Source: Lycium barbarum
Lineage: Eukaryota > Streptophyta > Magnoliopsida > Solanales > Solanaceae
Direction of reading: 5' to 3'
DNA: 64,000 nt
NCBI RefSeq assembly: GCF_019175385.1
Contig: NC_083341.1
Span: forward strand, 89,554,321 to 89,618,320
Below the pieces are notes generated by a model. That model ran no database searches, had not been told where the DNA came from, and was given only the letters and a program-made list of their open reading frames with translations. Positions 3,001 through 54,435 of the stretch are shown in pieces. Position numbers and translations under genes: made by a program. Each line of letters opens with the position of its first letter. Positions within the stretch are counted from its first letter, which is position 1.

Positions 3001-3137
3001 ACCTTCCATATCGTTACTCGCCTTCTTTCGTCGTATGTAAGGCTTATGTAAGGAATTCCATTTTCCTATGACTTGGCTCTATCGGACGATCCGAGATAGA
3101 AAGAAGGTCAACAATCCCTAAATGCCCTGTAGCCTCC

Positions 3138-3173
3138 TGTTTATAAATGTGGCCGGCTTCACACCGATAAACA
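3138..3173 (-). promoter_or_regulatory. Leader hairpin of element A, copy 1 (candidate dimerisation signal)
   Basis: This 36-nt inverted repeat has outer arms TGTTTAT/ATAAACA (7 bp), one mismatch, an inner stem and an 8-nt loop containing the palindrome GCCGGC. Two inner positions are A/C on the plus strand, which become G-U pairs in the sense (minus) RNA. It lies 46 nt downstream, in sense orientation, of the primer site. Equivalent 36-nt hairpins occur at 13286-13321, 29471-29506 and 54345-54380. Confidence 0.6.
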
Positions 3174-3219
3174 GGACTCTACTGGACACGACTTTGAAGA
3201 CAACCGCTAGGACAAACCT

Positions 3220-3231
3220 GCTCTAATACCA
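3220..3231 (-). other. Primer binding site (tRNA-iMet type), element A copy 1
   Basis: The minus strand reads TGGTATTAGAGC, complementary to the 3' end of initiator tRNA-Met with one C-to-T difference from the usual TGGTATCAGAGC. It sits 3 nt from the LTR edge at 3235, where minus-strand DNA synthesis would start. Confidence 0.8.
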
Positions 3232-3234
3232 CTT

Positions 3235-7700: not shown

Positions 7701-8961
7701 TTTTAGGGGCTCCTCATATGCCAATAGTTCTTCTGTGAGATCTTTTCCAACTTTGTGCATAACATATCGAAACTTCTTCCATAAGCTTTCCTTTTCATTT
7801 TCCGTCTACATTATCATTCTTGTTAACATTCCCATACTTTTCCATCCACTATTAATCCTCTTACCTATTTTAACTTACTTACTCGTAGTTCTTCTTAACT
7901 ACGCGTTCGCGTTGCAGCTATGCGTCCATTTTTTTTCGAACGTCTCGCTACTTTTGCTCACAGCACGGAATCCTTACGGTTTACACTCTCTTTATCTGTG
8001 CTCATTTAGCCTTGACTATACTTATGGTACTATGACCGAGCGGTCTTCCATGCACATTCTTTATATTTCATTCCATTTTCTCTAGGATCAAATCTTTCAG
8101 ACTTCACATGAATTCTCGCTCCATGCCTTTAATTTCGAAATCAACGGTGTTGACCCATTATCCTTATTCTTTTCTTGGTGCGTTATCGGGTTTCTATCGT
8201 TAACTTGTCAAAGTATCCTTCTTACTCCTATGATTAAGGATTTCCATTTGTTTTAATCCCAAATATTCTCCTCTTCTTTCGACTAATCCATTAATATACC
8301 TTGTCTACTTTCATTCTTAACCTTCCCTAGGTTCCTTCTTCCTCGAACACTTTTCTCCTTTTGCCATGTGTGGCATCGACTCTGAAGTTCATGAAATATT
8401 ACTTTATACGCGCAAATTCCGCTTCACTCTTAAGTCATCTTTTCAGAAAGGCACTTCCATATCTGAGGCATCCACGTTAATATGGCTGCACACATATTCC
8501 TTTATGTACCTTTCAAGGGCCGAAATTCTCTAACTGTCACGACCCAACCCCGTGGGCCGGGACTGGCACCCTAGCTGGGTAACCGTACATACCTACCTGA
8601 CCGAATTTCATATCGTACAGATTCTTTTTTTCAAACGGATATTACAGAAGTAGGCCTATACAGATACGGCACGCGCGCAAACATATATATATACCTGAAC
8701 ATGCAGACATTTACAGATAAGCCGATAAGGCTAACATACAGACGAAACCCGTAACCCACACATCTATCTACAAGCCTCTACAGACATACAGAATCATATG
8801 ACGGGACAGGGCCCCGCCGTACCCAGAACTTCCATACATACAGAACATACGGAAAACAGAAGATATATATACCAAAGTACATGCTCCGAATCAAAAGGAG
8901 CTCTTCAAGATAGCAGAACCTGTGCCCTAGACTAGCGGCGTGTCACCGAGTGCGCCTGTAC

Positions 8962-9017
8962 CTGCGGGCATGTAACGCAGCCCCCGAAGAACCGGGGGTC
9001 AGTACAAAAATGTACCG
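8962..9017 (-). promoter_or_regulatory. Three-hairpin LTR module, LTR B
   Basis: Stems CTGCG/CGCAG, CCCCC/GGGGG and CAGTAC/GTACCG follow each other. The one mismatch in the last stem is a G-U pair on the sense (minus) strand. Confidence 0.55.
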
Positions 9018-9160
9018 AGTATGTAAAGCAGAAATATATCAAACATAATCATGATCTGGACCGGAAGCGCATAAATATACTAGACTGGCTCATAAGCCGG
9101 ACAGACAGAGTCATAGTCCCGACAGACGGACATAATCATGGTCTAGACAGACAGAATCAG

Positions 9161-9229
9161 AATCCATACGGACATACAGAATCGGAATCCATACGGACAT
9201 ACAGAATCAGAATCCATACGGACATACAG
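9161..9229. repeat. 25-bp tandem repeat, nearly three copies
   Basis: Units start at 9161, 9186 and 9211, each beginning AATCCATACGGACATACAGA. Looser CATACAGA-type repeats continue on both sides (about 9120-9360). Confidence 0.85.
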
Positions 9230-12200: not shown

Positions 12201-13285
12201 AGCCTATCCAAATTCCAGAGCTGTGATGTACTCCCTGTCTCTTTACCGGTCTAGTCTGCCTCGTACTACGTGACCTCTTAGGGTCTCCAACCTCCCCATA
12301 TATTTTAGTTTCCCCTTAAGCTACTCTAACCTTCACTTATCTCTTGTATATGAATTTACAGAACTTTAGTGCACTTCCCAGGGGGTCACCCATCCTAAGA
12401 TTTTTCTTACCCCAGCACGCTTAACCCCAAAATTTTGATGAAATCTGGTAACTTAATGCTGATATAACCGTGTCCACTTCCTCGCATGACCTTCATTAAA
12501 TAATCTGGAGCAAGTCGAGGTCTTACGGATTTCGAGACATTCTCGTAACACGTCTTTCCCCTTTACAATTACTATTTTACCCTTTTCAATTCCACGTGTT
12601 CACCTTTCGCTTATGTATATACTACATTTCGTCCCAAATTCCTAGATTCCCGATGGTGACAAATATACCTTCGTCGCCGTTATTTATAAGTATTCGGATA
12701 TCAGTCTGTTCGGATTCGCACTCACCATTCTTGTATAATAATTTGTAGCAAAACTGATTATCGACTTTCTGAATCCCCCGATAGACCTTGCTCCTACTAA
12801 GCCTCGAATGTTATCCATTGCAATCCTTCGGACTGCAAATCGCCCTTCTAACAATTATTTTTCACGCTACGCCCAAACCCGTAGCTCCTCTAAAGCATCA
12901 CATCCCAGTTATTGTCTACTTACGGTATTTCCCTTCCTCACTTCCTTCTGTTAGACATACTTAACTAAGTGACCTGATTTTTGAACGATTTTAGCAGAAT
13001 CTTCTTTTACAGTTCTTACTATTCAGAATCCACACACAACTATTACCAACAATGCCTCACAGGACATACAGTCATATGACATATTCCAGCAACCCAGAGC
13101 TTTCAATTTCCAAGTAACAGAACAATTATATCAAGGCTTACCTCTATGACCTTCCATATCGTTACTCGCCTTCTTCCGTCGTATGTAAGGCTTATGTAAG
13201 GAATTCCATTTTCCTATAAATTTGTTCTATCGCACGATCCGAGACAGAAAGAAGGTCAACAATCCCTAAATGCCCTGTAGCCTCC

Positions 13286-13321
13286 TGTTTATAAATGTGG
13301 CCGGCTTCACACCCATAAACA
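13286..13321 (-). promoter_or_regulatory. Leader hairpin of element A, copy 2
   Basis: Same 36-nt structure as at 3138-3173: 7-bp outer stem, inner stem completed by G-U pairs on the sense strand, and loop with palindrome GCCGGC. It is 46 nt from the primer site at 13368. One internal-loop base differs from the other copy. Confidence 0.6.
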
Positions 13322-13367
13322 GGACTCTACTGGACACGACTTTGCAGACAACCCCTAGGACAAACCT

Positions 13368-13379
13368 GCTCTGATACCA
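13368..13379 (-). other. Primer binding site (tRNA-iMet), element A copy 2
   Basis: The minus strand reads TGGTATCAGAGC, an exact complement of the initiator tRNA-Met 3' end. It lies 3 nt from the LTR edge at 13383. Confidence 0.88.
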
Positions 13380-13382
13380 CTT

Positions 13383-16300: not shown

Positions 16301-16568
16301 CAAATTAGTCAAGCCCACTTTCTTTTCCTTTTTTTTTTTGTTTTGTAATTCATGAAAAATTTATTTTCCGAATTCCAAATTTGCCCTTAGCCTTCCTCCA
16401 TATTTCTATGAGTCATCTTGCGAATTTCCCTTTTTACCCTTAGCCTTTCTCAATATTTCCATACTAGTAAACAACTTGTTCATCGAAATAATTTTGGAAA
16501 ATAGTATTGCCTTTGACTTTTCACAATTATCTCAAATTATCCGATCGTACAAAATACGGGTCATAACA
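13383..16568 (-). mobile_element. Element A long terminal repeat, right copy (3186 bp)
   Basis: Near-identical to 3235-6400, with the same TGTCAC start and CATAACA end. In sense orientation it is the 5' LTR of the array. Immediately beyond its end, at 16569, Ty3 gag coding sequence of element F resumes in mid-gene, so A was inserted into F. The matching left flank and target duplication lie outside the window. The middle stem pair of the three-hairpin module (13770-13826) has changed to TTGTG/CGCAA. Confidence 0.9.
13770..13826 (-). promoter_or_regulatory. Three-hairpin LTR module, LTR A right
   Basis: The stems read TTGTG/CGCAA, a degraded C/G stem, and CAGTAC/GTACTG with a 7-nt loop. The outer pair of the first stem is T-A here instead of C-G elsewhere, a compensatory change. 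Confidence 0.5.
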
Positions 16569-19500
16569 GTTCATATGCGCTAGTCGGCCATGGTAGAGGC
16601 AGAGGGAGAGTCCCCAGTTCTAGCGATCCTCAGCACCGTGTTTATGCTTTGGCTGGATGCCAAGATCTTGAGTCTTCTCCTAACATGGTCACATGTATAT
16701 TATCGGTATTATTGATCCGGGTTCCACATTGTCATATGTTACTCCATATATTGCGGGTCGATTTAGAGTCGATCAAACCTTTTAAGGTGTCTACGCCCGT
16801 GGGTGAATCGGTAATAGCTAGCCAGGTGTATAGAAATTGTGTAATTGTGATTTGTGATCGTCCTACCATGATTGACTTGCATGAGTTAAAAATGGTAGAG
16901 TTTGATGTTATTATAGGTATGGATTGGTGGCTTCTTGCTACGCCAACGTTGATTGTAGAATGAAAATGGTTCGTTTCCAATTTCCGGGAGAACCAGTTTT
17001 AGAATGGAAAGGAAATACGGCGTCACCAAAAGGTAGGTTTATTTTCTATCTAAAGGCAAGGAAAATGATCACGAAAGGTCGCATTTACCGTCTAGTTCGG
17101 GTTCAAGATGTAGCAGCTGAATCACCGACTCTTCAGTCAGTTCCTGTAGTAAATGAATTTCCGGATGTGTTCCCGGAAGAGCTTCCAGGCCTTCCTCCCG
17201 AGTGGGAGATTGATTTTGCTATTGATGTGTTGCCAGGCACTAAGCCTATATCTATTCCTCCCTATAGAATGACACCTGCAGAATTGAAAGATTGAAGGAG
17301 CAGTTGAAAGACTTGCTTGAGAAAGGCTTTATTAGGCCTAGTTCATCCCCGTGGGGAGCACCAGTATTGTTTTTCCGAAAGAAAGATGGCTCCTTGAGAA
17401 TTTGTATTGATTATCGGCAATTGAATAAGGTGACGATTAAGAATAAATATCCTCTCCCGAGGGTTGATGACTTATTTGATCAACTGCAAGGTGCCAAATA
17501 ATTTTCAAAGGTCGATTTGAGGTCCGGGTATTATCAAGTGAGAGTTAGGGAGAAAGGTATCCCTAAGAGAGCCTTCAGAACAAGATATGATCATTTTGAG
17601 TTCCGGGTAATATCATTTGGGCTAACTAATGCGCCAGCGGTATTTATGGATTGGATGAATAATGTGTTCAGGCCTTTCCTAGATCTATTCGTGATTGTAT
17701 TCATCGACGACATCTTGGTATATTATAGATCCAAGGCAGAACATGCAGATCATTTGCATACTATCCTTGGAGTTCTTCAAACTTGAGAGTTGTTTGCAAA
17801 GTTTTCCAAATGCGAGTTTTGGTTGAACTCGGTGGCATTTCTGAGGCACATTGTTGCCGCCGATGGTATTCAAGTGGATGGTCAAACGATTGAGGCCGTG
17901 AAGACTTGGCCAAGGCCCACAACTCCTACGGAGGTTCGTAGCTTTCTGGGCTTGGCAGGTTATTACAGGAGATTCGTTGAGAGCTTTTCTTCTATTTTTG
18001 CACCACTCACAAAGTTGACCCAGAAATCAGCAAAGTTTCAATGGACAGATGCTTGTGAGCGTAGTTTCCAAGAGTTGAAAGATAGATTGACTTCTGCCCC
18101 AGTCTTGACACTTATAGAGGGATCGGAATGATATGTTGTTTATTGCGATGCTTCAGTTGTTGGGCTACACTATGTATTAATGCAACATGGTAAGGTGATT
18201 GCGTATGCTTCAAGGCAGTTATGAAAACATGACAAGAATTACCCAACCCATGTTCTAGAGTTAGCCGCAGTGGTTCATGCATTAAAGATATGGAGACATT
18301 ATTTATATAGTGTCCATGTGGATATTTATACAGCTTATAAGAGTCTTCAGTATATCTTCAAGCAGAAGGAGTTGAATTTGCGGCAACGACGATGGTTGAA
18401 ATTGCTAAAAGACTACGATGTCGATATCATGTATCACCCCGGAAAGGCAAATGTTATGGCTGATGCCCTTAGTTGCAGATCTATGGGAAGTTTATGTGAT
18501 GTACGACCAGAGAAAAGAGAAATGGCTCATGAGCTCCAGCAACTAGCTAGTCTAGGAGTTCGAGTAGTGGACTCAGGTAGCAAGGGAACTACTATTCAGA
18601 ATTTAGCAGTCTCGTCGCTAGTAGCAGAAGTGAAGAAGCGACAATACGAAGATTCCATGCTAATGCATTACAGAGATACACTCCCTCAGAAAGAGGAGTC
18701 ATCATTTGATCTTTCAGGAGACGGAGTTCTCCGATGTCAAGGCAAACTATGCGTTCCCAAGGTGGCAGGTTTATGCCACCAGATATTGAAAGAAGCTCAT
18801 TGTTCCCATTATTCTGTTCACCCCGGTGTGGCGAAGAAGTATTGTGATCTTAAGTCTGTATATTGGTGGAATGGGATGAAGAAAGATATAGCAAAATTTT
18901 TTGCTCAATGTCCCAACTGTCAACAGGTGAAAATCGAGCACCAAAAGCCGGGTTGATTATTGCAAGCCATAGAAATTCCAACTTGGAAGTGGGAAGTAAT
19001 TAACATGGACTTCATTGCAGGCTTACCCCGTTCTCGACGTAAGTATGATTCTATATGGGTGATTGTGGATAGGCTCATAAAGTCAGCTCATTTCTTACTA
19101 GACAGAACGACCTATGTGGTAGAAGATTAAGCAAGGCTTTATATTAAAGAGGTAGTGAGACTCCATGGTATTCCAGCATCTATTATCTCTGATAGAGGGA
19201 CTCAGTTTACAGCAAATTATTGGAAGTCTTTCCAAGAGGGTTTAGGGACCCAAGTGAGCCTTAGCACGGCATTTCACCCGCAGACCGATGGGCAAGCTGA
19301 GCGCACCATTCAGACTTTTGAAGATATGTTACGGGCATGTATGCTAGATTTTGAAGGTAATTGGGATGACCATTTACCGCTCATTGAATTTTCTTACAAT
19401 AATAGCTATCACTTTAGCATTAAAATGGTACCGTATGAAGCCCTATATGGGCGGAAGTGTAGATCCTCAATTGGGTGGTTTGAACCAGGAGAGGCTAAGT

Positions 19501-20081
19501 TAATAGGACTAGACTTGGTCCAGCAATCCATAGAGAAAGTCAAGCTCATACAAGATCGGTTATTAGCAGATCAAAGTCATTAAAAGTCCTATGCGGATAA
19601 TCGTCGAAGGGACTTGGAGTTCCAGGTTAAAGATTGGGTATTCTTGAAAGTGTCGCCAATGAAGGGCGTCATGAGATTTGGCAAAAAGGGGAAGCTTAGT
19701 CCCTGATACATTGGGCCCTATGAGATTGTACGAAATATAGGCAAGGTGGCCTATGAGCTAGATTTACCTCCGGATTTGGAGTTAGTCCATCCAGTTTTTC
19801 ATGTCTCGATGCTTCGAAAATGTGTTGGAGACCCTACTAAGATCGTGCCAATAAGTGATGTGTAGGTGATAGAAAAGTTGACTTATGAAGAAGTACCCAT
19901 TGTCATACTAGATAGGCAAGTACGGAGGCTTAGAAACAAAGAGGTGACCTCAGTTAAGGTTCTATGGAAAAGCAGTAAACGAGAATAAATGACATGGGAA
20001 GCGGAAGAAAGTATGCGATCTAGATACCCGCATTTATTTCAGCCCTTGGGAGAGATCCCAGACGAGATATCAAGATCATAA
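16569..20081 (+). pseudogene. Ty3/gypsy (Tekay/Del-type chromovirus) gag-pol remnant, element F
   Basis: This is the decayed polyprotein of an LTR retrotransposon. The order is: end of gag; protease (DPGSTLSYVT near 16710-16740); reverse transcriptase (17290-17900, with [17 protein letters not shown] and FIDDILVY); RNase H (about 18130-18480, with YCDAS and [10 protein letters not shown]); integrase (zinc motif near 18800-18935 with SVHPG and [15 protein letters not shown] near 19190, and GQAERT with the catalytic Glu near 19300); and a C-terminal chromodomain (about 19870-20040, TWEAEE, RYPHLF). At least eight in-frame stops and some frameshifts break it, for example near 17294, 17500, 17785, 18130, 18224, 18956, 19128 and 19581. 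Several could be CpG or CpNpG C-to-T decay. The gag start lies left of the window because A interrupts it. Confidence 0.93.
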
Positions 20082-24429: not shown

Positions 24430-24473
24430 TCCTCTCCCTCCCCCCCCCCCAGTAACATTCGTCCTCGAATGTA
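24430..24473 (-). promoter_or_regulatory. Polypurine tract and AGGA hairpin of C
   Basis: TCCTCTCCCTC plus a run of C follows the LTR. The inverted repeat AACATTCG/CGAATGT(a) at 24454-24473 has sense loop AGGA, as in A, D and F. Confidence 0.7.
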
Positions 24474-24733
24474 GAGGTGTATGGGGAGGTCAACTTACTA
24501 GGTATTTGATGAGGGGGAGTGCCTCTAGAATGTATCCGTTAAACTTGTTACGCCTCTTGTATTCGTTGTAAGTAGTTGTGTATACCTTTAGGTATGGAGA
24601 TTCGTACCCGATTTTATGAGATATTAAGTACCTTACCCCGCGTATACTAAAGTACAAGTATATACTCCTTACAATACAATAGGATTAAAGTTAAATGAAT
24701 TGAATTAACACGAATCGAAGCAACTCAGGGAAT

Positions 24734-24888
24734 CAGGGACCTGTGCACTTTGACGGTGCAAAAGGACGGCCCGTCAACATGTTGACGTGGCATCTTTTCA
24801 CACCATCAACATGCCAAGGTCCCTGAATCTCAGGTTACAGAAGAACGGTGCACGTCGACAGCCGTCAACGTGTTGACGAGCTGTCGAC
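24734..24888. promoter_or_regulatory. Nested palindromes in the U3 of solo LTR G
   Basis: CAGGGACCT (24734) pairs with AGGTCCCTG (24817). Inside lies the perfect palindrome GTCAACATGTTGAC (24773-24786). A second, larger near-palindrome spans 24854-24888 with outer arms GTCGACAG/CTGTCGAC and inner GTCAAC/GTTGAC. Each inner palindrome contains two opposed TTGAC cores, the core of WRKY-bound W-boxes; binding is inference only. Confidence 0.6.
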
Positions 24889-24931
24889 CCTGCTTGTCGA
24901 CCCTGAGGCGGTGGAACTTTATTCCACTTGA

Positions 24932-24940
24932 TATATATAG
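24932..24940 (+). promoter_or_regulatory. TATA-like box of LTR G
   Basis: TATATATAG about 390 bp into the LTR, in GC-poorer sequence downstream of the palindromes, is the likely core promoter position. Confidence 0.45.
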
Positions 24941-26129
24941 CAATAAAACATTTTCCTCTTCATTTATACCCCTCCAACCAGAGAAAACCCCTAATATGTT
25001 CCTGCCAACCTTTCCTAACATATTAGTGAGATTTTAGCAAGATCTGAGCCTCGTGAACCCAAACTAGTGAAGGGAAAGTTGTTCCTAGTGTTCTATTGAA
25101 GTTGTTGAGATTAGGAGTTGGACTTGGAGTTTGATTCCCGAAGTTCTAGTTCCTTCAAGGTATGTAAATGATTCTTACCTTTGTTATTGAGTTGATTACC
25201 AAAAGTTTTAGGGATTTAAAGTGAAGGAAATATAGTTATGGAAGCGGTAAGTTGATTGAGTTTAAAGTTGAGATTAAGGACTGTTTTGGGAGATGTTTGG
25301 GAATGGATTTTATTATATTTTGATATGTAAGTATTGGTATTGTTGTTGTTTTTGATGTTTGGGTTGAATTTGAATTTGAAGGATTGTTAAGTTTATAGAG
25401 AAAATGCTGTTCGAATTTTGTTAAGTTATAAACTAGTTTAAAGGTTGGAATGTAAGCACGTTCTAGTCTAATAGTTGGCCTACTTAGTCTTGTGTGTAGA
25501 TTTGTCAAGCCCGTGAAATAAGCATAGTTAGCTTGAGGAGCGGATAAGGTATGATAAGGCTATCCCTTTTATTCTCTTGGCATGATCCTTATGATACGAA
25601 CGAAAGAAGTAAACGAGCGAGTTCCAAAGATTCTGTTCCTAGATAGTATAGGATTCATTGTATCCTTGATTTCATATGTTTCATATCTACAGCTTCTAAA
25701 GATCTATTATATTGACATACTAGCTACTTATGTTACTGGGAGATCTTATGTTACCATGAGGAGTTTAGAGCATCCTTTTACGAGTCTTTCATGCACACAT
25801 ATATACGTAAAGCTATTTTCTTACACCTCACCGTGCTATAGTTGGTCGGGCAGGCACGTAGATGTGCACACCACTGCAGTGGGTACGGTATGAGATTACC
25901 CCGGACGTGGGATGACAGGATATATGGATCGTACAATACGTTCCACATCACCAACAGTTATACTATGATATATGTATATGATTTTGAAAGAAAGCATTCA
26001 TATCATACGCCGCAGAGGCACTTTCTGTTATACAGAGTACACAGACACTTTCAGATACTGGATTAGCTTTCATGTTTCAGATATCTCTCATGATTCTTAT
26101 GTACATGTTGTTCTTATGCCTTACATACT

Positions 26130-26187
26130 TGGTATATTATTCATACTGACTCCCCTATTTCTCGGGGGTTTGCGTTCATGCTCTCAG
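26130..26187 (+). promoter_or_regulatory. Three-hairpin LTR module, LTR G (diverged)
   Basis: The first stem is TGGTAT/ATACTG: relative to CAGTAC/GTACTG, its loop-closing pair changed from C-G to T-A on both arms, and other changes are G-U tolerant. The second stem is CCCC/GGGG. The third has mostly decayed. Confidence 0.5.
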
Positions 26188-29100
26188 GTTCAGGTAGACA
26201 GACAGGCGGTTCAGCTCAGCAGGACTGGCACCCAGGAGTGGTCAGTGCCCTCTACTTGGTTCGGAGCTGCAGTCTATTTTTGGTATGGAATTTTGAAATG
26301 TATATATAGGTATGACAGGTCCCTGTTCCGTCCTTTCTACAGCTTTGTATTCTTTTAGAGGTCTGTAGATAGTTGTATATAGTTTGGATGTTATGTAGCC
26401 TTGTCAGCTCTTATTTTGTTGTACAACATATGTAGCAGCCTAGTCGGCTTGCATTGTTATTTTCAGTATATATGTATACGGGTTGTTGTGAGTTCTTGAT
26501 GCATAATTCATGGTGTTATTCTTAAAGGAGTCAGTATAGTTCAGTTAGAAGTCATATATGGGCAACCCTGTTATTCAATGAGATCTAGGTATGAGTATAA
26601 GGGTGTCTAGTCAGTAGAAGTTAGGCACTCGTCAAGACTCATCGATTTGGGTTGTGACAAAACTAGATCGCAATCGACTCTAACCACATGATTGGTTCTC
26701 CTTATATTCCGACTTTTTGTTTTGTTAACAATCATGCCATCCACACAATTCATCTTAAGGAGGGGTTATGTTCCCATCTGAAGACCATCCATATGATTTA
26801 TTCTCTTGACGTCATGGTACATCTCAGTTGATTCTGGGTGACTAGGATAATGAGAGTAATGTATCCTTACCATGATTTAATGTCATAGTCCCACTACATC
26901 TACAAAATATAATTGTCTTGGCATCTCATAACCTCATCTTTTTGTCCATCTTACCTGTTGTTACCTGATTCCATCATACTTCTTTCTTTAACTCACAAAA
27001 TCAATGGAGAATCTTCTTATTGCCGCCCTTTATTTTTCAGATTATGGTGTCGTATTTCTAAGTGACAACACTTTCCATATTCCGATTTCAACAATCGGAC
27101 TCCTAAGTAGTCAACTGGCGTAACTTGTCTAACTTCCCCTTCTCGGCCTAAGTAGGCTAGGCTGGTTATAGATTTGAGACTGACGGTGTTAGGTACAACG
27201 TTAGTTTGGTCAGATGACATAGGATGTGAATATTATAATTCTATAATAACTCAAGCAACCTCCTTCCTGATTTACATTTAGAAGGTCTTCCTTAGTCATG
27301 CTAACTTGCGAGCTTACCGTAGCACCTTAGGTGAGTTGACCCACCTATAATTACCTCCAACTGCTTTCACCTTCTCCCTTATTCTAATATTGTTTCCTTA
27401 ACCATAAACTTTAAATGCTTGCCTTGTATCTTAAGCTCAATGGTCCGTTCCTATTTGAAGCATGCATGTTGAACTTTAGCAGCCATCACTTTCATTAAAG
27501 TTTCCTTAGAGTTGGAACTGTGACCTACAAAACTGAAATCTCATGCACTCGAATCCTCTAGGTAGTCCTGTAGGGTCTAGTGGCTCATCTGTGACCTCTT
27601 GTCTGGCCACACCTAGGCTCTTCACAAGTCAATTATTGGTTGGTTGTGTCGAGCTATCTTCTAAACATTAATTTTCCAAAGAACTCCTCTCGAGCCTTAT
27701 CTCTCCGGCGCCGCTTATCCTTCATAAATCCCCAAGTTCTCAATGCCCAACTGTACTTACTATTAGTCGGTATCCCAGCCAAGTTTACTACCATCTCATA
27801 CCTAGCGCTCACACATACTTATCGTTCTAAAGCCGTGGCATATTGGTAGGGCTTAAATTACTACTATCTCATCCGCTTCTCACCTTTAGCTACAATTTAT
27901 TGCCACTATGCTATTAAGCATTTCTATAATATTATCTTGATGCTTTACCGCATTACCTCCCTCCTTTGGTAGAATAGCTAATATCTCATGCCCAAACATT
28001 CTACCCATGTAGCGTCACATTGCTACCTTTCTGCTTTTACCAATTCTTCAAACATCTGATACTTATCGTTCGCCTTACTTTAACCTTCACTTATTGGGAA
28101 CAGCTAAATAATTTACACGTATAGGGTTCCACTTATTCACAATTAGCGGTTTTTGATCTCAATGAACTTAATTTTTACTCACGATATATGTCTTAAGGTG
28201 GTCGTCCTTATTGACTTTCAAGGGTCACTCTTCTATCGTATGCCCGTTCACTGACTAATTGCGAAAAATGTTGCAGTTCCCATTACTATCAAATTCTCTC
28301 AAATTCCTAACACATATTCGATTTAAATTAACCACTATTAGTATTTCCTTAGCCAGGTTGCTAAGTCAATCTACTTATAACTCCTTCCTGAGTGGCCAGC
28401 TCACTTTTCATAATGAAGGCCTAGCCTCATGACTTGCATTCCTTGTACTTCCGACACTTGCCTCCTCTTGCCTTTTTTTTATTTGACCATGAGTCTTGTC
28501 GCACCGTCATGCCTATCCTACGACATTCACTCGCTTCTTATAGCTATGTCTTACACTTCACTTATGCTAACGGCCTATACTAACTTTACCATCTTATCTT
28601 ATTCAATAAAATCCCAACAAAACGTCCTTTCATTTCTAGTTTCTCTTCTCCTTAGCCAAGCTTGACCTTTGGTTGTTCAATTCCTCTCGTTTACTAACAG
28701 CACTAGTCATACCGAGGTGAGTGCGTATCCCATGAACAAAGATTCAACTATCTACTCCCCTGCGTTGCCTAATGCTTCAGTAGTCGTGCCTGACTATACC
28801 ATCCTTAGACACGCTATGCATATACACTGCCTAATGAGGGACTACAAACACGTTCCTCGGCAATACAATTCAAACCAACCACTGACCCCAATGCTAATGG
28901 TTTCTATAACCCGTACTAGATTCTAAAATCCCATTCCTTCCTAAAGCCGCGTCGTTGAAGTCGAGAGATCGCAACTGAAATGAGTAGTTCTAACTATGCT
29001 CAGATCACTGTTGGAAGCAGAACTGTACCACTCGCATTTCTTCATCTGAGGTTCAGATACTTACAGATCTTTCTCTCTCGGTGGCTCATGCCTTCTCCAC

Positions 29101-29470
29101 CTTACCTCTTTGCCTTTCAAACTTCTTACCTTTCCTCCTGATGTCCTCCTAACCCTTTTTCTCCCACATACAAATGAGGTGAATGTTCACATTATAATGT
29201 TCTGACTTCATGCTTGCACATCTCATGCAAGTATGATATAATGAAAGCTTTACATTCATTTTTACCATGAACATGAGTTCGGACTGAGTCTTTGTGACTT
29301 CATTCTTTCCATAGCCCCTCGTCTAACGTCTGACTAGTCGTCTGTATCTTAGTCGTTGGGATCAACATATCATGTAAGGAAGACTAGGAAGGGATTTCTT
29401 ATCACTCAGCTCTATCGCACGATATAGATCAAGAAAGAAAGGCAACAACCCTAAATGTCTTGTAGCCTCC

Positions 29471-29506
29471 TGCTTATAAGTGTGGTGCGCTACACACCCA
29501 TAAACA
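29471..29506 (-). promoter_or_regulatory. Leader hairpin of element C
   Basis: This 36-nt inverted repeat has outer arms TGCTTAT/ATAAACA (the C/A position is a G-U pair on the sense strand), an inner stem with GTGTG/CACAC, and the 8-nt loop GTGCGCTA. At the tenth stem position it has G-C where D has A-T and A has a sense G-U pair. It lies 44 nt from the primer site. Confidence 0.6.
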
Positions 29507-29550
29507 AGACTCCGTTGGACATGGATCATAGACATCCCTAGGAAAGACCT

Positions 29551-29562
29551 GCTCTAATACCA
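29551..29562 (-). other. Primer binding site (tRNA-iMet type), element C
   Basis: The minus strand reads TGGTATTAGAGC, one change from the exact complement of initiator tRNA-Met, 3 nt from the LTR start at 29566. Confidence 0.8.
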
Positions 29563-29565
29563 CTT

Positions 29566-30692
29566 TGTCACACCCCAAACTGAGGGGCATGACGGGCACC
29601 CGGCATTATCGGCCGAGTACCACCTAGCGTACATTCAATATACTCAACTTATAACAACTACGAGGAGCCATATGACGTACGTGTAACATAAAGGGATCAC
29701 CTGCATGCAGAAAAGGACCAATACAGTAATTTATATATATACACGCAAGCCGACCAGACCACTACTAATGTCTATGAAAGATCACAAAGCCGACAATGCC
29801 ACAATAACAGTATGAATACCAAACTAAGGCTGTATATAACATCTATACATATACCACCTGTCTATGAGCCTCTAAGAGTAACCATAAATGTAACATAGCG
29901 GTCAGGACAGGGCCCCACCATACCCAGAAAATATAGATAAAGCATCTATATCGTAGCATACCAAAACCGAGCAAGTCCGGAAAAAGTAGAGCCTGCAAAC
30001 TATCCGTTGAACTGTGCAAGCCTAAACAGATGGTCCTCCAACTGCCTGTCAGGACCTGCAACACAAAATATAGCGCCCTGTGCAATATGACGTCAGTACG
30101 GATAAAAGTACTAAGTATGTCAGGAAGGAGTACAACAACTAACAAGGAAACGTAATAGAAGAAGAACCATATGCAATGGATGTTGTAGTTTAAAAAATCC
30201 TGAATATACATATATATACATAAGTAAAAGTAACATCATCATCATAACGTACCCGGCCTTAACAGGACTCGGTGTGAAACATACCCGGCCATAATAAGGC
30301 TCGGTGTTATCATACCCAACTGATCAGTGGTGCGTAATACATACATACATATATATATATATAGTGCACTCTAGTGCCGTACCCATCGATTATAGCTCGG
30401 GGTGTATCATTATATTTTATGCATCTACGTATATAGTGCACATTAGTGTCATACCCACCGAGAGATCGGGGTTTGTCATTATATTATATACATATACATA
30501 TATATGATGAACTCATGGAAACAACGTCTTGGCCTTTCGGAGTGATGTAAGCTCGAAATAGAGAACAAAACCTGTATGTTGTTCTTGATAAGAACTATAC
30601 TCTGCTTCCTCAAAATTGACAATTATGTTGTTGCCAAGAATTGACATTGCTGCTCCTTGTGAAAATAGGGGTTCCATATACTTATACTTATG
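29566..30692 (-). mobile_element. Right LTR of element C, first part
   Basis: It begins TGTCACACCCC beside the primer site. It is cut at 30692 by copia element H and continues at 44795. From 30159 it matches the left LTR (22855 on). It contains a reduced form of the LTR module (CAGTAC/GTACTA at 30094-30113, with the middle and third hairpins missing) and CCCGGCC/CTCGGTG repeats (30250-30480). Confidence 0.87.
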
Positions 30693-31006
30693 TGTTAGAG
30701 CGGAAACGATAAAAATACAGTAATTAACGTGGTTCAAATCGATGTGATCTTAGTCCACGGAGATCGACAGGCACATTTATTAATATCAAGGTAGAGGGTA
30801 AGTTAGAAGATTGAATACTCTTAGGTTCTATTTTTTGTCCTACTTAATAAATCCTAGCTAGCATGTACTTATATTACTAAGTCTAATCCTTTCCTAGAAA
30901 GGATCTAAATCCCAATAACACTTGAAAGCCAACAAAGAAAAAAATTTCCTTTTATTTCTTTCTGCTTTTGAGTAGCACTTGGCTTGAATATCTTCTCAAC
31001 TTCACA
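30693..31006 (-). mobile_element. 3' LTR of copia H
   Basis: It matches 44482-44794 closely: TGTTAG start, TTCACA end, and a shared GCGGAAA.GATAAAAA.ACAGTAATTAACGTG block. Next to it, at 31007, the sense strand has AAAGTGGAGAT, a plausible short purine tract. Confidence 0.88.
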
Positions 31007-37707: not shown

Positions 37708-37743
37708 TCCTTCCCCCCTTTGGAACTTTCATCCTCGAATGTT
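37708..37743 (-). promoter_or_regulatory. Polypurine tract and decayed AGGA hairpin of E
   Basis: TCCTTCCCCCCTTT follows the LTR. The inverted repeat AACTTTCA/CGAATGTT at 37724-37743 keeps the sense loop AGGA but has lost one pair. Confidence 0.65.
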
Positions 37744-40700
37744 AGACTAGTCCTGCACTCCCAGTACTTCCTTAAATGTTCTTTTATTGAATTATGCCCT
37801 TCACATGCCTTTGCATTGGTCGATTCCCTTCAATTTATTATAACGCATTCCAGATCTCTAAGTAACCATTCCCGTAATATTTCTCCTTGCTCTTACCTCT
37901 CGAGGTAATAGTTCCACGTCATTGTCTTTACTCTCCTCTTCATTTCGCAGTTGGTTGACGGTTGTATTGCGAGCTCTTCTGCTGAAATCTTATTCTCTTC
38001 CTGGTGCACCTAGTCATAACTCGACTCTTTCTTCTTCTATAAGTTACTCCCTTAAGATGTATCGTTCAATTCATCTTACCTCTTAATCTTTACATAAGAT
38101 TTTATAACGCGCAGACGTCCCTCGTCGATTTATTAGACTTTATAATCCTGGGAGTAATTCATGCCTCTGGTAACCTATAGACCCTTCGCAGACTCTACGA
38201 TTAAAACGAAATTTCCCAAGGTGTAACACTATTTTACTTTAATAACCTTACATTGCTCTGCTGTTCCAGTCCATATTCTGTAGCCTTCAGCCTCATGTAT
38301 CACTTCTCGACTTCTTTTTTTTTTTAAAGATTTTGACTGTCACTTTGCTTTTAGCTCTTAATCTTGAATTTTTTGAGTTGGCTATCAAGTAGCGCTGGAG
38401 TACCCTCATATATAACTTTACATAGCTGCTCTATGATTTATCTATCATTAACTGGTATAATTCTGAAAGAATTTTTGATCTGACATATAAATTCACCGTC
38501 TTCTAGTAACCAGCTCGTTCTATTTCCTCTTTACTCAGATTTGCTCTTAGTTTTTCTGTCACACACTATATTGCAATCTTTACAAGAATATGCAAAGGTG
38601 CTCAAATTAGCGCAAGAAATACCATAGTGTCGTTTCACTATTCTTCATGCTTTACCTTGCATTCTCCTCTCATATCTTACAATTGGTATCGGGATAAATC
38701 TTCGGTACAACCATGGGCTTGTCCTATTTTCCCTCAGTACTAATTCTATCTCGGTAATTTGGCTCAAACCATCTTTACATCTTTCCTTAATGCGCCCAAA
38801 ATATCGTAACCACATTGTTATTACTGAATCCTTACTCTTCTTATCAAGTACTAACTTGGTCTCATTCTTAGCATACAAATATTCGTAGGTTGTATAACTA
38901 TTCTTGTACAACTTGTATAAAGTATATTTAATCTTAGTTATAGTCTTTCCTTCTCCCGATTCATTCTGCTTTACATATCTCATCCGTACTAAAACTCGCT
39001 CATAGCCTATCTTATCATACTCTTTTCCCTTCAGTTATTCCCCCCTTTGATTTTCTCATATCCTACTATAGGAGATTTTCTATCCCTTCCCTTTGTTACT
39101 TATAAGTCGCAATATAATTAGCGCACAACTCTATTGCCAAATCTTAGCCTCTAATCTAGTATAGCATTTCTATCCTTTACCATAACTCTTAAGTTACTCG
39201 TTACCATTCTCTTATCGTACTCTTTCTTTTTATAAGACCCACTTTCTAATGTCTTATCATTCAAGGTCTTTACAAATAATTCTTAGCACTGTCTCAAATA
39301 CCATTCTAACTTCTATCCATTTATTGCTGGCTTTCAGATCTTACTAACTTGTTTCAGCAAGGGATCTCACTTGAAGTTTAAGCATCCATATCAAATATAT
39401 TGCAGTGTCAATTGTTTCCATCTTACACTTGCATTTCTCTCACCCGCTTCCCCCCTTAAGGGTGTACTTATACCATTATCTGTTCATATTCTGCTCTATG
39501 TCCCTATTTCCAATCTCAAATTCATCTGATCCCTTTTCCAATTCACTTGGTATACTGTACCATATCCATGTCCTTTCTTTATAATTTATAACTTTGATTA
39601 TCCACGTACGAAACCTTAACAAAATCACGAAGTGACGAGAACCTTTCTATATATAGTATAAAATCTCATCTGATAATTTGTACTCAAGTAATGCAACCAA
39701 TGTAGTAACTCACCCAAGGCCACATTCGGTTTAATGCAATCAACAATTAATTATCACTTGTAATCGTTCCAAATTCTCAATTAGGTAACACTTATATCCT
39801 GATGATAAGTGTCCAAAGTTTTCTTGTAACATTTTCTTTATCCCAACCTATATCATCTATTTCCTTTAATAAATTTACAATACATCATTTGTTCGTCAAG
39901 CTTACAGTCCTTGTCCTATAAGGATTTCACTATTTCCGAGGTGAAGTCATATACGCGCACTACTCCTTTATGCCTTATACTCCTTTACCCTTGTTGTGTA
40001 CCCAACACTGACTTGTAACTTACTCAAAATAATATCAAGTTCTTCTTAATAATGGTCTTATCTTATCACCTTGTTGTCGTACTACACCTTTAAGTTTGTA
40101 GCTATATATTTTCCTTTCGTTCTATACCCATAATCAATTAATTACGTCTATCTTGGGTGCTTCCTTTAGAATTACCTTACCATTTCTCCAGTCTATGTCC
40201 ATCTTTTACTCTATGCACAAGAAATCTTATGCTACCACTATATCCTTCGGAAAACATTACTTCTGCATAACCCTTTTCTCATTTTTAAAAAGTATTTTGT
40301 TCATCCCTGTGTGTTCTTATCATCCCAGTCATTTTATCGCACTCATTCTACCTCATTTCCCATCTATCTGTAGTTTGTTCTTTCATAATTCCATCACTTA
40401 TATTACTTGTGTTCTCGGCTATACGTATCATAACCCGTTACTACACTGTTATCTCGCTTTCTTCTTATTACCTTCTTTCAATTGCTCATTCTTTTCTTCT
40501 GCTCGCTATCATTTCTGTTACCACATAATCTTTTTTCTGAACTTTTCCATACAAAACATTATAAGTCTTTCTTATTCGTTCTACAGCTCGCTTTTCCGTT
40601 TCACACTTGCCTTTATACTCTAGTCACATAGATCACGTCATATCTTTTAGGCACTTCCTCACTAGGCTTTGCTCATTTTCATAACAATACTTATTATATT

Positions 40701-41641: not shown

Positions 41642-41653
41642 GCTCTGATACCA
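41642..41653 (-). other. Primer binding site (tRNA-iMet), element E
   Basis: The minus strand reads TGGTATCAGAGC, an exact match to the complement of initiator tRNA-Met, 4 nt from the LTR at 41658. Confidence 0.88.
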
Positions 41654-50063: not shown

Positions 50064-50099
50064 TCCTTCCCCCCTTTAGAACATTCATCCTCGAATGTC
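50064..50099 (-). promoter_or_regulatory. Polypurine tract and AGGA hairpin of D
   Basis: TCCTTCCCCCCTTT after the LTR, then AACATTCA/CGAATGTC at 50080-50099, with sense loop AGGA. Its two A/C positions become G-U pairs on the sense strand. Confidence 0.72.
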
Positions 50100-50207
50100 G
50101 AACTAATCTCACCCGGTCTTACAGGGACTTCGGGGGAGTCTCCTTTATTGTTATAACATATCGTTTTATTCACCAATCAATATAGTCAACGAGGAGTTAG
50201 ATTACCT

Positions 50208-53200
50208 TTATTGGAAGGATCTCCAGAAGTTAGCTGTAAACTGGGCCCCTCTATCGGAGATAATGGCTGTGGGAATCCCGTGAAGTCTCACTATCTCTTT
50301 GAGGTACAATCTGGCATAGTCCTCAGCTGAATATGTAGTTCTGACAGGAAGAAAGTGGGCTGATTTTCTCAACCTATCAACGATGACCCAAATAGAGTCA
50401 TATTTCCGCCGAGTACGAGGTAAACCTGTGACGAAGTCCATATTGATCACTTCCCATTTCCAGGTCGGAATCTCCATCTCCTGTAATAATCCACCAGGCT
50501 TCTGATACTCAATCTTAACCTGTTGGCAATTTGGGCACTGAGCAACAAACTCTGCTATGTCCCTTTTCATGCCATCCCACCAGTACAAACATCTGAGATC
50601 GTGATACATTTTCGTTGACCCTGGATAAACAGAATAAAGGGCACAATGTGCTTCTCTCATAACCTGTTGCCGTAACCCTACAACCCCAGGTACACATAAT
50701 CTGCCCTTATATCGTAGCACTCCATCAGGTGGAACCTCGAATGGGGTCCCCTCTTTCTCAAGGGCTATATCTCTATACTGTGCCCAAACAGGGTTTTCAT
50801 ACTGGCACCGCTTTACCTCTTCTATAATGGAGGGGTCAGCAACCTCTCGAACAGAAACCCCGCCATCTCCAGAATCAGCTAAACGAACTCCAAGACTAGC
50901 TAGTTCATAAATCTCACGGACTATTTCCTTCCCTTCTAGTTGCACGTCCGCCAAGCTGCCCATATATTTACGGCTAAGTGCATCTGCTACGACATTTGCT
51001 TTCCCTGGATGGTATAGAATATCAACATCATAATCCTTCAGCAATTCTAGCCATCTTCTCTGCCGTAAATTCAGCTCCTTCTGCTTAAAAATGTATTGGA
51101 GGCTTTTATGATCCGTATATATATCAACATGTACGCCATATAAATAATGTCTCCATATTTTCAGAGCATGAATCACCGCTGCTAACTCCAGATCATGGGT
51201 GGGATAATTCCTTTCGTGCTTTCTGAGCTGTCGGGAGGCATAGGCTATAACTCTGCCATGCTGCATCAACACACAACCTAACCCAACACCCGAGGCATCA
51301 CAATAAATAACATAGCCATCTGGCCCCTCAGGAAGCATCAAAACCGGAGCCGTGGTCAACTTCTCCTTCAACAACTGAAAGCTTCGCTCACAAGCATCGG
51401 TCCACTGAAACTTGGCTGCCTTCTGTGTTAGCCTTGTTAAAGGCGCTGAAATTGAGGCAAACTTCTCCACAAACCTCCTGTAATACCCTGCCAGCCCCAG
51501 AAAACTGCGTACCTCGGTCGGCGTCGTAGGCCTCGGCCAAGTCTTCACCGCTTCAATCTTCTATGAGTCTACCTGAATGCCATCAACTCTGACAATATGC
51601 CCCAAGAATGCTACTGCAGTTAACCAGAATTCACATTTAGAGAACTTGGCATACAATTTCTGGTGCTGGAGCACCCTGAGTACCGTCCTCAAATGATCTG
51701 CATGCTCTTCTTCTGATCGTGAATAGACCAGAATATCATCAATAAATACAATCACGAACAGGTCAAGGAATGGCTTGAACACTCGGTTCATTAAGTCCAT
51801 AAATACCACTGGAGCATTGGTCAGCCCAAAAGACATTACTCTAAACTCATAATGCCCATATCGGGTCCTGAATGCAGTCTTCGGAATATCTGCTTCTCTT
51901 ACTCGCACCTGATGGTAGCCTGACCGCAAGTCTATCTTTGAGAAGCACTTAGCACCCTGCAACTGGTCAAATAAATCATCAATCCTGGGGAGAGGATACG
52001 TGGTCTTTATTGTTACTTTATTCAACTGCCTATAATCAATACACATCCGCAGCGACCCATCTTTCTTTCTCACAAATAATACCGGTGCTCCCCAAGGTGA
52101 TGTACTGGGCATGATAAAACCCTTTTCTAATAAATCTCTCAGTTTCTCCATCAATTCCTTCAGTTCTGCAGGTGCCATCCTGTAAGGAGGAATAGATATG
52201 GGCTGAGTGTCTGGTAGTACCTCTATAGTGAACTCTATCTCACCCTCAGGGGGAAGGCCTAGAAGTTCATCTGGAAATACATCGGGAAACTCACTAACTA
52301 CCGGCACTGACTGAAGAGTCGGCGCCTCTGTCTTCAGGTCGGGCACTCGAACCAGATGATACATATAGCCCTTTCTGACCATCTTCTTTGCCTTGAGGTA
52401 TGAAATAAACTTACCCCTCGGCGATGCTGTATTTCCCATCCACTCTATAATTGGCTCGCCTGGGAACTGAAATCGGACTATCTTGCCTCTACAATCAACG
52501 TTAGCATAACAAGAAGCTAACCAATCCATACCCATAATAACATCAAACTTAGTCATATCTAGCTCTATCAAATCTGCCTTAGTGAAACGACTATATATGA
52601 TCACTGAACAATCTCTATATACTCGTCTTGCTATAACAGAGTCTCCTACTGGTATGGCTACCTCAAATGGTTCAATCAACTCAGGTTTTATTCCGATTCT
52701 ACTAGCAACAAAGGGAGATATATATGATAAGGTGGAGCTTGGATCTATCAATGCATATACGTCCCGAGAGAAAATCGATAATATACCTGTAACCACATTT
52801 GGTGACGCCTCCTGATCCTGCCCACTAGCCAAAGCATATATGCGGTTCGAAGGACCGCTAGAACTGGAAGCTCCGCCACGGCCTCGACCATGGCCTGCTG
52901 GTGTCTGAATACCTTGCCCCATAGGGCGCATAGCCACAGAAGAAGATGAACCAGCAACTGACCCAGTAGGCTGAGCTGCACCACCTGGAACACCCCCATA
53001 CGGACACTCCCTCATGATATGGCCTTGACGGCCGCAAGAAAAACAAGCACCTGTAGCGAGACGGCATTCCCCCGGATGGCGCCTGCCGCACCGAGGGCAC
53101 TGAGGCATAGATGGTCTCGTCTGGCTTAAACCTCTGCTCAACTGCGAACCCGAAGACCTGGAGCTCTGACCAGCTCCTGAATACCCCGTGCTGTCAAATC

Positions 53201-54235
53201 TCCTACCAGTGAACTGTGGGGGTGCACTCCGTGCTGGCTGAGAAGGATATCTATTATGCTGCGAGTAGGGCTGCCTGCCTCGAAACTCGCCATAATACCC
53301 AGCTGATCTAACTCTCTTATGCTGACCCCTGTCATGATCTCTCTCAGGATGACATCCTCTATGTCGGTCCTCTACCCCCTGTGCGTATGCCTGCACTTGA
53401 GAAATATCCATACCGGGCTGAGAAGCCATTATCATACAACTATTGATCAAGTAACGGTCCAGCCCCATCACATAATGATGGACCCTATCAGCCATATCAG
53501 CTACAATAGTGGCTGCATGTCTAGCCAACGAATCAAACTCAAGGCTATAATCTCGAACACTCCTGCCATTCTGCCTCAGGTGTAGGAATCTATCAACTCT
53601 GGCTCGCCTCATCTCCGGAGGTAGAAAGTGGCCAAGAAAGGCCTCTGTGAACTCATCCCACACCGCTGGAGGAGCACCCTCGCCCCTAGACAATTCCCAG
53701 GACTCATAACATTTAACCGCTACATCTCGTAACCGATATGAAGCCAGCTCGACAGACTCAGTCTCAGAAGCTCTAATTATCCTCAACGTACGCTGCATCT
53801 GCCGAATAAACTCCTGGGGATCCTCCCCGGTCTTTGACCCATAGAACTCTGGAGGATTACAAGTCAAGAAATCACGAGCCCTTAAGCTATCATGTCTGTC
53901 CGCATAATCACCTCCTAACCCGTGCCTGCGGGCCTGCCCTGCCACTAGTCTGGTCAATAACTGAACTGCCTCTCTCATAGCCCATCCCCCGCCCCTGGCT
54001 GAGGAGGTGGAGGTTCGGGTACTGGACCCTAGGAAGCTGGCGGTGGTGCCGCCCCCTGACTTGCAGTTGCTGCTGCTCTACGCTCCTCTGATAGTGGCGG
54101 TGTAGCAGAGCTCGCTGACTGGAGCACGACCTCAGACGCAAGATGGGCATGAGCCCTAGTAACTCTCCGGGTCTGGCTGGTCTCTCCAGCCACTGATTTA
54201 CCCTTCTGGGCAGCTGTCGCTTTCTTTGGAGGCAT
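50208..54235 (-). pseudogene. Ty3 chromovirus gag-pol, nearly open, 3'-deleted (element D)
   Basis: Gag starts MPPKKATAAQKG at 54235. A TAG at 54029-54031 and a frameshift near 53980 separate this tail from an 805-codon frame (53978-51561). That frame holds the capsid region, two Cys/His motifs ([26 protein letters not shown], about residues 311-324), protease ([13 protein letters not shown], residue ~409, with DPS instead of DTG or DPG) and RT ([25 protein letters not shown] near residue 745). A lone TAG (51561-51563) precedes 446 more codons in the same frame, with RNase H ([14 protein letters not shown]) and integrase ([22 protein letters not shown]). The zinc-binding His of SVHPG is Tyr. 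The frame stops at 50208, before the third catalytic residue (Glu). Confidence 0.94.
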
Positions 54236-54344
54236 CGCTGTAAACATAACAATCCGTTAGGGAGGAATTAACCTGTTAATACAGCTCTATCGCACGATCT
54301 AGAGTAAGAACGAAAGGTAACATCCTAAATGTCCTGTAGCTTCC

Positions 54345-54380
54345 TGTTTATAGATGTGGTGCACAACACATCGATAAACA
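54345..54380 (-). promoter_or_regulatory. Leader hairpin of element D (candidate dimerisation signal)
   Basis: Outer stem TGTTTAT/ATAAACA (7 bp), one A/G mismatch, inner stem GATGTG/CACATC (6 bp), and the 8-nt loop GTGCACAA, whose first six bases are a palindrome. It lies 43 nt from the primer site, between it and the gag start. Architecture, length and position match the A and C hairpins. Confidence 0.68.
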
Positions 54381-54423
54381 AGACTCTACTAGACACGGTC
54401 TGTAGACACTCCGAGGATGAACA

Positions 54424-54435
54424 GCTCTGATACCA
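54424..54435 (-). other. Primer binding site (tRNA-iMet), element D
   Basis: The minus strand reads TGGTATCAGAGC, exact, 4 nt from the LTR edge at 54440. Confidence 0.9.

What the first reader, a model, noticed from the sequence alone, without database searches (positions are those of the whole stretch)
54345..54380. Covarying hairpin with palindromic loop downstream of the primer site: a candidate kissing-loop dimerisation signal
Seen: elements D, A (two copies) and C carry a hairpin of exactly 36 nt, placed 43-46 nt after the primer site in sense orientation (54345-54380, 3138-3173, 13286-13321, 29471-29506). All have a 7-bp outer stem, about one mismatch, about a 6-bp inner stem and an 8-nt loop. 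Stem position 10 is A-T in D, G-C in C and a sense G-U in A. Other substitutions give G-U pairs only on the sense strand, as expected for RNA. Loops contain palindromes: GTGCAC in D, GCCGGC in A, and a shorter GCGC in C. Known: retroviruses such as HIV-1 use a hairpin with a 6-nt loop palindrome between primer site and gag to start genome dimerisation. Inference: these elements use an equivalent signal, and the coding element D shares the architecture with protein-less A and C, which could explain packaging in trans.
Basis: partly seen in the sequence, partly recalled or inferred. Interest (0 to 1): 0.88.

Follow-up and report, generated by a model that had tools for sequence, protein, structure and literature searches.

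The report
RNA dimer hairpin in plant retrotransposons
Three kinds of plant jumping element in this stretch, two of them without any long protein gene, carry the same long RNA hairpin just after their replication start site, and its self-complementary tip is predicted to let two copies of the RNA pair up, likely so that they are packaged together.

Summary
The hairpins are real. At all four stated places, 43-46 nt after a primer site, the 36-nt hairpin is the tip of a ~68-nt stem-loop ("SL1") with 26-27 pairs in D and A. On the sense strand it folds far better than shuffles (z -4.5 to -7.1), and less well antisense. The apical stem is conserved (5 of 32 columns vary), the loop is not (6 of 8). 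Yet loops stay self-complementary: six letters in D and A, four in C.

The covariation claim is weak. One pair changes on both sides while staying paired, and a shuffle test on four sequences shows no excess. C's lower stem is frayed. Element E, with primer site and a D-like LTR, lacks SL1, as does an outside relative. D is itself defective (gag broken, integrase cut short).

Best reading: a dimer-initiation/packaging stem-loop of a plant Ty3/gypsy group, kept by non-coding relatives. The RNA structure is well supported by computation; kissing dimerisation is inferred. Such signals are known in retroviruses, proposed for Ty1 and Ty3, and mentioned for barley BARE, so this is a new variant of a known kind. 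The family-wide test could not be run: the own-genome search did not complete.

The parts
54329..54396 (-). SL1 of element D: whole 68-nt stem-loop (6 bp, A-A, 4 bp, 2x2 purine loop, 10 bp, C-U mismatch, 6 bp, 8-nt loop)
   Evidence: (MFE -30.7, z -7.08)
54345..54380 (-).
   Evidence: z -3.89
54359..54364 (-). self-complementary loop hexamer GUGCAC of D
54424..54435 (-). primer-binding site of D, TGGTATCAGAGC
   Evidence: tRNA-iMet assignment from general knowledge
3122..3189 (-). SL1 of A1; loop hexamer GCCGGC at 3152-3157
   Evidence: (-33.4, z -5.67)
3220..3231 (-). primer-binding site of A1 (one mismatch)
13270..13337 (-). SL1 of A2; loop hexamer GCCGGC at 13300-13305
   Evidence: (-36.8, z -6.62)
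13368..13379 (-). primer-binding site of A2
29455..29522 (-). SL1 of C; apical stem intact (17 pairs counting G-U), lower stem broken by three A-C mispairs; loop UAGCGCAC, GCGC at 29487-29490
   Evidence: (-27.4, z -4.54)
29551..29562 (-). primer-binding site of C (one mismatch)
54289..54298 (-). second conserved motif of the leader, AUCGUGCGAU, self-complementary with central U-G/G-U; in D and C it falls in or across a small hairpin loop
54233..54235 (-). likely gag start codon of D, 93 nt after SL1
51561..53978 (-). D open frame: capsid (Retrotrans_gag), CCHC knuckle, protease, RT
50208..51548 (-). D open frame: RNase H and the first part of integrase (cut short)
41642..41653 (-). primer-binding site of element E, whose leader lacks SL1 (negative case)

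Best explanation
The feature is a conserved 68-nt stretch, predicted to fold into an RNA stem-loop (SL1), in the leader between primer-binding site and gag of a group of plant Ty3/gypsy retrotransposons and their non-coding relatives; its exposed self-complementary loop is predicted to start dimerisation of two genomic RNAs by loop-loop kissing, which likely couples to packaging by Gag. Shown by sequence and computation: the stem-loop as folded, its place, its strand bias, the conserved stem with a changing loop, and loop self-complementarity. Inferred: the kissing contact, opening into a longer duplex, Gag recognition, and trans-packaging of A and C RNAs by a helper that carries the same leader.
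For: Sense-strand folds of the 68 nt: -30.7, -33.4, -36.8, -27.4 kcal/mol, z -7.1, -5.7, -6.6, -4.5; antisense z -5.2, -4.3, -3.9, -0.7. In a 500-nt context the 16 apical pairs have mean probability 0.97-1.00 and the loop is unpaired at 0.98-1.00 in 4 of 4. 103 of 108 cells pair on the sense strand against 89 of 108 on the antisense; 17 G-U cells against 3 A-C. Sliding the 3' partners by 1-3 columns drops pairing from 95.4% to 34-58%. Apical stem varies in 5 of 32 columns, ungapped flanks in 29 of 51 (Fisher p 2e-4), loop in 6 of 8 (loop versus apical stem p 0.003). Loop self-pairing as stable as seen occurs in 3.5% (D), 0.26% (A) and 3.3% (C) of 5000 random 8-mers of leader composition, and in 4.5%, 3.6% and 10.5% of permutations of the same letters; combined p 0.012 for D and A, 0.008 for all three. 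In the window at large, 32 of 487 hairpins with 8-nt loops and stems of 6 or more, simple repeats dropped, have a 6-nt palindrome in the loop (6.6%; 4 of the 32 lie in SL1, counting both strands). Of the stretches compared (A2 11658-16568, C 24430-31006), the LTR-end/primer-site/leader block is by far the longest match (187 nt at 79%; the other two are 62-100 nt and inverted). Published precedents, as passages.
Against: No significant covariation: 361 of 500 shuffles reach the observed score; 0 pairs changed on both sides against the commonest pair. C's loop is palindromic over 4 nt only, and its lower stem has three A-C mispairs. In D the most self-complementary hairpin loop of the first 400 nt is the second motif (GAUCGUGCGA, -9.8 kcal/mol), not SL1 (-7.9); in C and A2 a non-SL1 octamer (UCCUAGGG, -11.0) is also strongly self-complementary. 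On the antisense strand D, A1 and A2 also fold better than 200 of 200 shuffles. E has primer site and a related LTR but no SL1 and no self-complementary loop in 400 nt. An outside relative (L001, RT 77% identical) has a different leader hairpin and no strongly self-complementary loop (best -3.7 kcal/mol). D's GUGCAC and C's GCGCAC differ by one transition, so D's palindrome could come from C-to-T decay. D and C loops are not independent, and the hairpin was noticed partly because of its palindromes, so the p-values are optimistic.
Confidence: 0.5

Rival explanations
1. SL1 is a Gag-binding packaging hairpin that works as a monomer; loop self-complementarity is incidental.
For: The stem is the conserved part and the loop changes freely. 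C's loop is not a full palindrome, yet its apical stem is intact. Purine-only 2x2 internal loop in D, A and C (alignment).
Against: Loops of D and A are more self-complementary than most permuted loops. In retroviruses packaging and dimerisation are described as tightly coupled (passage).
Confidence: 0.25
2. SL1 serves another cis function of the RNA: nuclear export, control of gag translation (the start codon lies 93 nt downstream), or presentation of the primer site.
For: Position between primer site and gag start. A kissing-loop RNA export element exists in mouse MusD (passage in PMC12786077).
Against: A and C have no long frame to translate yet keep SL1; loop self-complementarity would be unexplained.
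Confidence: 0.12
3. No present function: A, C and D inherited or exchanged one leader by recombination, and the hairpin is a relic that has not yet decayed.
For: Covariation not significant with 4 sequences; E and L001 lack it; the copies are not young (LTR pairs of D 94% and E 93% identical; the two A copies 95.8% over LTR plus internal part).
Against: Apical stem much less variable than flanks of the same leaders (5 of 32 against 29 of 51 columns, p 2e-4), and strand-biased pairing.
Confidence: 0.13

Closest known systems
Retroviral dimer initiation site (HIV-1 SL1 and kin)
   Same: Stem-loop in the 5' leader with a self-complementary loop; a GC dyad is described as conserved (passages), and D and C loops have one
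   Different: Plant Ty3/gypsy element; A's loop has CG at its centre; also on relatives without long coding frames; dimerisation untested
Yeast Ty3 dimerisation site DS/PAL6 (PMC11381356, passages seen)
   Same: Same superfamily; palindrome in the apical part of a short hairpin; kissing dimer proposed
   Different: PAL6 lies in the gag reading frame, not between primer site and gag; no sequence comparison was made here
Yeast Ty1 SL1a-SL3a kissing loops (PMC5454406, passages seen)
   Same: Loop-loop pairing proposed to start dimerisation and packaging; authors suggest loop divergence may keep Ty1 and Ty2 RNAs apart
   Different: Ty1 pairs two different loops; here one loop would pair with itself; Ty1/copia, not Ty3/gypsy
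Barley BARE1/BARE2 (PMC3735527, passages seen)
   Same: Plant element without Gag said to keep conserved dimerisation and packaging signals and to be packaged in trans
   Different: Ty1/copia; the signal itself is not described in the passages I saw

Membership tests
Kissing-loop dimer initiation site | Stem-loop between primer site and gag | tested here: met
   D: 36-nt tip 43 nt after the primer site, SL1 ends 93 nt before the gag ATG. A and C have the primer site but no gag found
Kissing-loop dimer initiation site | Stable stem with unpaired apical loop | tested here: met
   Predicted only: 4 of 4
Kissing-loop dimer initiation site | Six-nt self-complementary loop | tested here: inconclusive
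   2 of 3 element types (D, A); C has 4 nt
Kissing-loop dimer initiation site | Covariation of the stem across relatives | tested here: inconclusive
   4 sequences only, no excess over shuffles
Kissing-loop dimer initiation site | RNA dimerises through the loop; loss lowers packaging | not testable with these tools
   Needs RNA experiments
Ty3/gypsy LTR retrotransposon (element D) | gag, protease, RT, RNase H, integrase in this order between LTRs | tested here: met
   Pfam matches on 6 separate pieces; integrase incomplete; LTRs 94% alike
Chromovirus (element D) | Chromodomain after integrase | tested here: not met
   D's frame ends inside the integrase core, about 145 nt before the LTR. A chromodomain-like stretch was seen by eye, from recall, in fragment B only; no profile was run on it
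Large non-coding LTR derivative, LARD-like (A, C, E) | Two LTRs, primer site, long internal region without gag/pol | tested here: inconclusive
   Longest stop-free stretches 192 (A2), 129 (C) and 173 (E) codons, all antisense; longest sense ones 87, 107, 129. Matches to D's six protein pieces: none in A or E, one 40-residue integrase match in C. Two LTRs seen for A and E; C's second LTR and left border are inferred from partial matches only

The most novel reading that the evidence does not exclude
The SL1 loop is a mate-choice tag: each plant retrotransposon family carries its own self-complementary loop, so RNAs pair and are co-packaged by loop type. A would pair only with A (A-A -12.1 against A-D -2.2 and A-C -1.9 kcal/mol), while C could pair with D (-7.0, near D-D -7.9 and C-C -8.1). 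Non-coding elements would thus either ride as heterodimers or keep to their own kind, and the loop would govern recombination between families.
Probability: 0.18. Interest if true: 0.75.

Novelty: new variant of a known kind. Interest (0 to 1): 0.5.

Why it matters
How plant Ty3/gypsy RNAs are chosen for packaging, and how elements without proteins hitch a ride, is little studied as far as I could see. In a 2025 review of the plant LTR life cycle no word of the main text begins with "dimer", and my ten paper searches listed none that, by title and opening abstract lines, describes such a signal in plant Ty3/gypsy elements; that is a limit of these searches, not proof of absence. If SL1 is the signal, it gives a defined 68-nt RNA for a simple dimerisation test and a marker for finding non-coding elements mobilised by the same helpers.

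Tried and rejected
Rejected: chance hairpin (0 of 200 shuffles as stable in each of 4). DNA inverted repeat with no RNA meaning: less likely because pairing is better on the sense strand (103 against 89 of 108 cells), though by my own hand count of that table 8 pairs show G-U-type against 3 A-C-type changes, which is not significant. Known RNA family: no Rfam match to SL1 (best mir-606, 17.2 bits against a cut-off of 80). Covariation as proof: not supported. A first control on loop palindromes in the window (370 of 856 hairpins with stems of 6 or more) seemed to make them commonplace, but it was swamped by AT repeats; with 369 simple-repeat hairpins dropped it is 32 of 487.

Led nowhere: exact patterns in viral contigs (0 matches; 2 loci, each with a frame of over 750 codons and no leader resemblance, judged chance) and in genome contigs (0). 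RT search in viral contigs: no relative among 64 and 101 pattern matches. RT search in genome contigs: 4 loci of 143 pattern matches, judged by me to be eukaryote contamination of bacterial records; only L001 held an exact primer site (L002 and L003 had two-mismatch matches in unfit places, L004 none), and it lacks SL1.

Full report
WHAT IS THERE. The window is plant DNA dense in LTR retrotransposons. Among the best 120 of 7996 hits of the RT piece of element D, the named ones are plant proteins, with Solanum and Withania members at 75-82% identity and Tanacetum, Helianthus and Cucumis in the same list; one unnamed short contig reaches 93%. I infer a Solanaceae host but did not identify it. 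Five primer-binding sites, all on the minus strand, match TGGTATCAGAGC with 0 or 1 mismatch (up to 2 allowed): D 54435, E 41653, C 29562, A2 13379, A1 3231. Assignment to initiator tRNA-Met is from general knowledge.

THE HAIRPIN. Folding longer pieces shows that the 36 nt are the tip of a 68-nt stem-loop. From the base: 6 bp, an A-A mismatch, 4 bp, a 2x2 purine internal loop, 10 bp, one C-U or G-U position, 6 bp, 8-nt loop; in C the lower part is frayed. Sense-strand energies are -30.7 (D), -33.4 (A1), -36.8 (A2) and -27.4 (C) kcal/mol, with 0 of 200 shuffles as good in each; antisense energies are -25.8, -24.9, -24.1 and -14.8, with 0, 0, 0 and 44 of 200 shuffles as good. In 500 nt of context the 16 apical pairs are predicted at mean probability 0.97-1.00 and the loop is open in 4 of 4; the 10 lower pairs at 0.66 (D), 0.98, 0.99 (A) and 0.26 (C). 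A covariance model of the four finds these four places (on both strands, sense scoring higher) and otherwise one chance-level match (10.4 bits, E 2.4) in the window; no Rfam family matches.

SELECTION. Among the four leaders, 5 of 32 apical stem columns vary, 7 of 20 lower stem columns, 6 of 8 loop columns, and 29 of 51 ungapped flank columns (33 of 55 with gaps). So the apical stem is constrained and the loop is not. Pairing is kept in 103 of 108 cells on the sense strand (89 on the antisense), with 17 G-U and 3 A-C cells; the 3 A-C cells are all in C's lower stem, and the other two unpaired cells are the C-U position of D and A1. True covariation is not shown: no pair is changed on both sides relative to its commonest form, and 361 of 500 shuffles reach the observed covariation score. 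Position 10 (A-U, G-U, G-C) is the only pair that varies on both sides and is paired in all four, and it does so through a G-U step. Four sequences, two of them near-identical copies, have little power for this test.

THE LOOP. Loop octamers are UUGUGCAC (D), AAGCCGGC (A) and UAGCGCAC (C). Self-pairing energies as linear duplexes are -7.9, -12.1 and -8.1 kcal/mol. Such values or better occur in 3.5%, 0.26% and 3.3% of 5000 random octamers of leader composition and in 4.5%, 3.6% and 10.5% of permutations of the same letters; combined p is 0.012 for D and A, 0.008 with C. As a further control, 32 of 487 window hairpins with 8-nt loops outside simple repeats have a loop hexamer palindrome; before simple repeats were dropped it was 370 of 856. 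D and A differ in two of three loop pairs, each on both sides, so the palindrome is there in both in spite of sequence change. C keeps a four-letter palindrome. D and C loops differ from each other by one transition within the hexamer and are not independent. Linear duplex energy is only a proxy for a kissing complex. SL1 is not the only self-complementary place: in D a second hairpin loop (GAUCGUGCGA) scores better (-9.8), and in A2 and C an octamer near the primer site (UCCUAGGG) scores -11.0.

WHAT KIND OF ELEMENTS. D codes capsid, CCHC knuckle, protease, RT, RNase H and part of integrase, between LTRs 94% alike. Its gag start is followed by an in-frame stop and the capsid frame is another one, and its integrase frame ends before the rest of the core domain. 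A, C and E have no long sense frames (longest 87, 107 and 129 codons). Of the stretches compared between A2 and C, the longest match is the LTR-end/primer-site/leader block (187 nt, 79%), the others being 62-100 nt and inverted; A2 and D share LTR pieces too (up to 599 nt at 68%). That is what one expects if the leader carries signals read by shared proteins, but an exchanged leader would look the same.

NEGATIVE CASES. E has a D-like LTR (pieces of 70-96%) and primer site but no SL1; the best self-pairing among 11 leader hairpin loops is -1.0 kcal/mol. L001, in my judgement a contaminant contig in a bacterial record, with RT 77% identical to D's, has another strong hairpin after its primer site but no strongly self-complementary loop (best -3.7). 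SL1 is thus a feature of a subgroup, not of all related elements.

MECHANISM. I think it most likely (0.5) that SL1 starts genome dimerisation by loop-loop kissing and is part of the packaging signal. Shown: the stem-loop (as computed), its place, strand bias, constraint, and loop self-complementarity. Inferred: kissing, conversion to a stable dimer, Gag binding, packaging of A and C by helper proteins. The main rival (0.25) is a monomeric Gag-binding hairpin.

KNOWN SYSTEMS. Ty3 5' RNA dimerises in vitro through PAL6, which in vivo is placed in the apical part of a hairpin and lies in the gag frame (PMC11381356, passages). For Ty1 a two-loop kissing complex is proposed (PMC5454406, passages). 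Retroviral sites hold a GC dyad in a kissing loop (PMC12789967, passages). For plants, a BARE paper mentions conserved dimerisation and packaging signals in the Gag-less BARE2 (PMC3735527, passages). The idea is therefore known; its occurrence as a defined stem-loop in plant Ty3/gypsy elements and in their non-coding relatives is what would be new. Of the other listed papers I saw titles and opening abstract lines only, apart from passages of PMC5035971, PMC2829016, PMC4974528, PMC7215508 and PMC12786077.

LIMITS.

Noticed in passing
12355-12475 (minus) and 2207-2327 (minus): A 5S-rRNA-like stretch lies in the sense strand of A's internal region, in both copies (Rfam 40.2 bits against a cut-off of 38 in A2; the A1 counterpart was read by offset, not scored). 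Cassandra elements carry 5S in the LTR (passages); here it is internal.
   Followed up: partly
1-16568: A appears to form a shared-LTR tandem: internal, LTR 3233-6400, internal 6401-13379, LTR 13381-16568; A2 holds a ~3.1-kb insertion (8535-11657) that A1 lacks, part of it like D's LTR, with an apparent 5-bp target duplication.
   Followed up: partly
about 6401-6440, 50064-50103, 37709-37750 (minus): A short hairpin ACATTCG-AGGA-YGAATGT directly before the polypurine tract is shared by A and D and nearly by E, perhaps a second conserved cis signal.
   Followed up: no
54289-54298, and leaders of A and C: A second conserved leader motif, AUCGUGCGAU (one change in A1), self-complementary through U-G pairs; in D and C predicted at a small hairpin loop.
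   Followed up: partly
16586-20000 (plus): Remnant pol of another Ty3/gypsy element (RT 79% like D's) that continues through integrase to a chromodomain-like stretch (by eye) which D lacks; it begins right after A2's LTR, so A likely inserted into it.
   Followed up: partly
L001 1235-1434: Retroelement like those of plants in a record titled Labilibacter sediminis, probably contamination; a different strong hairpin follows its primer site.
   Followed up: partly
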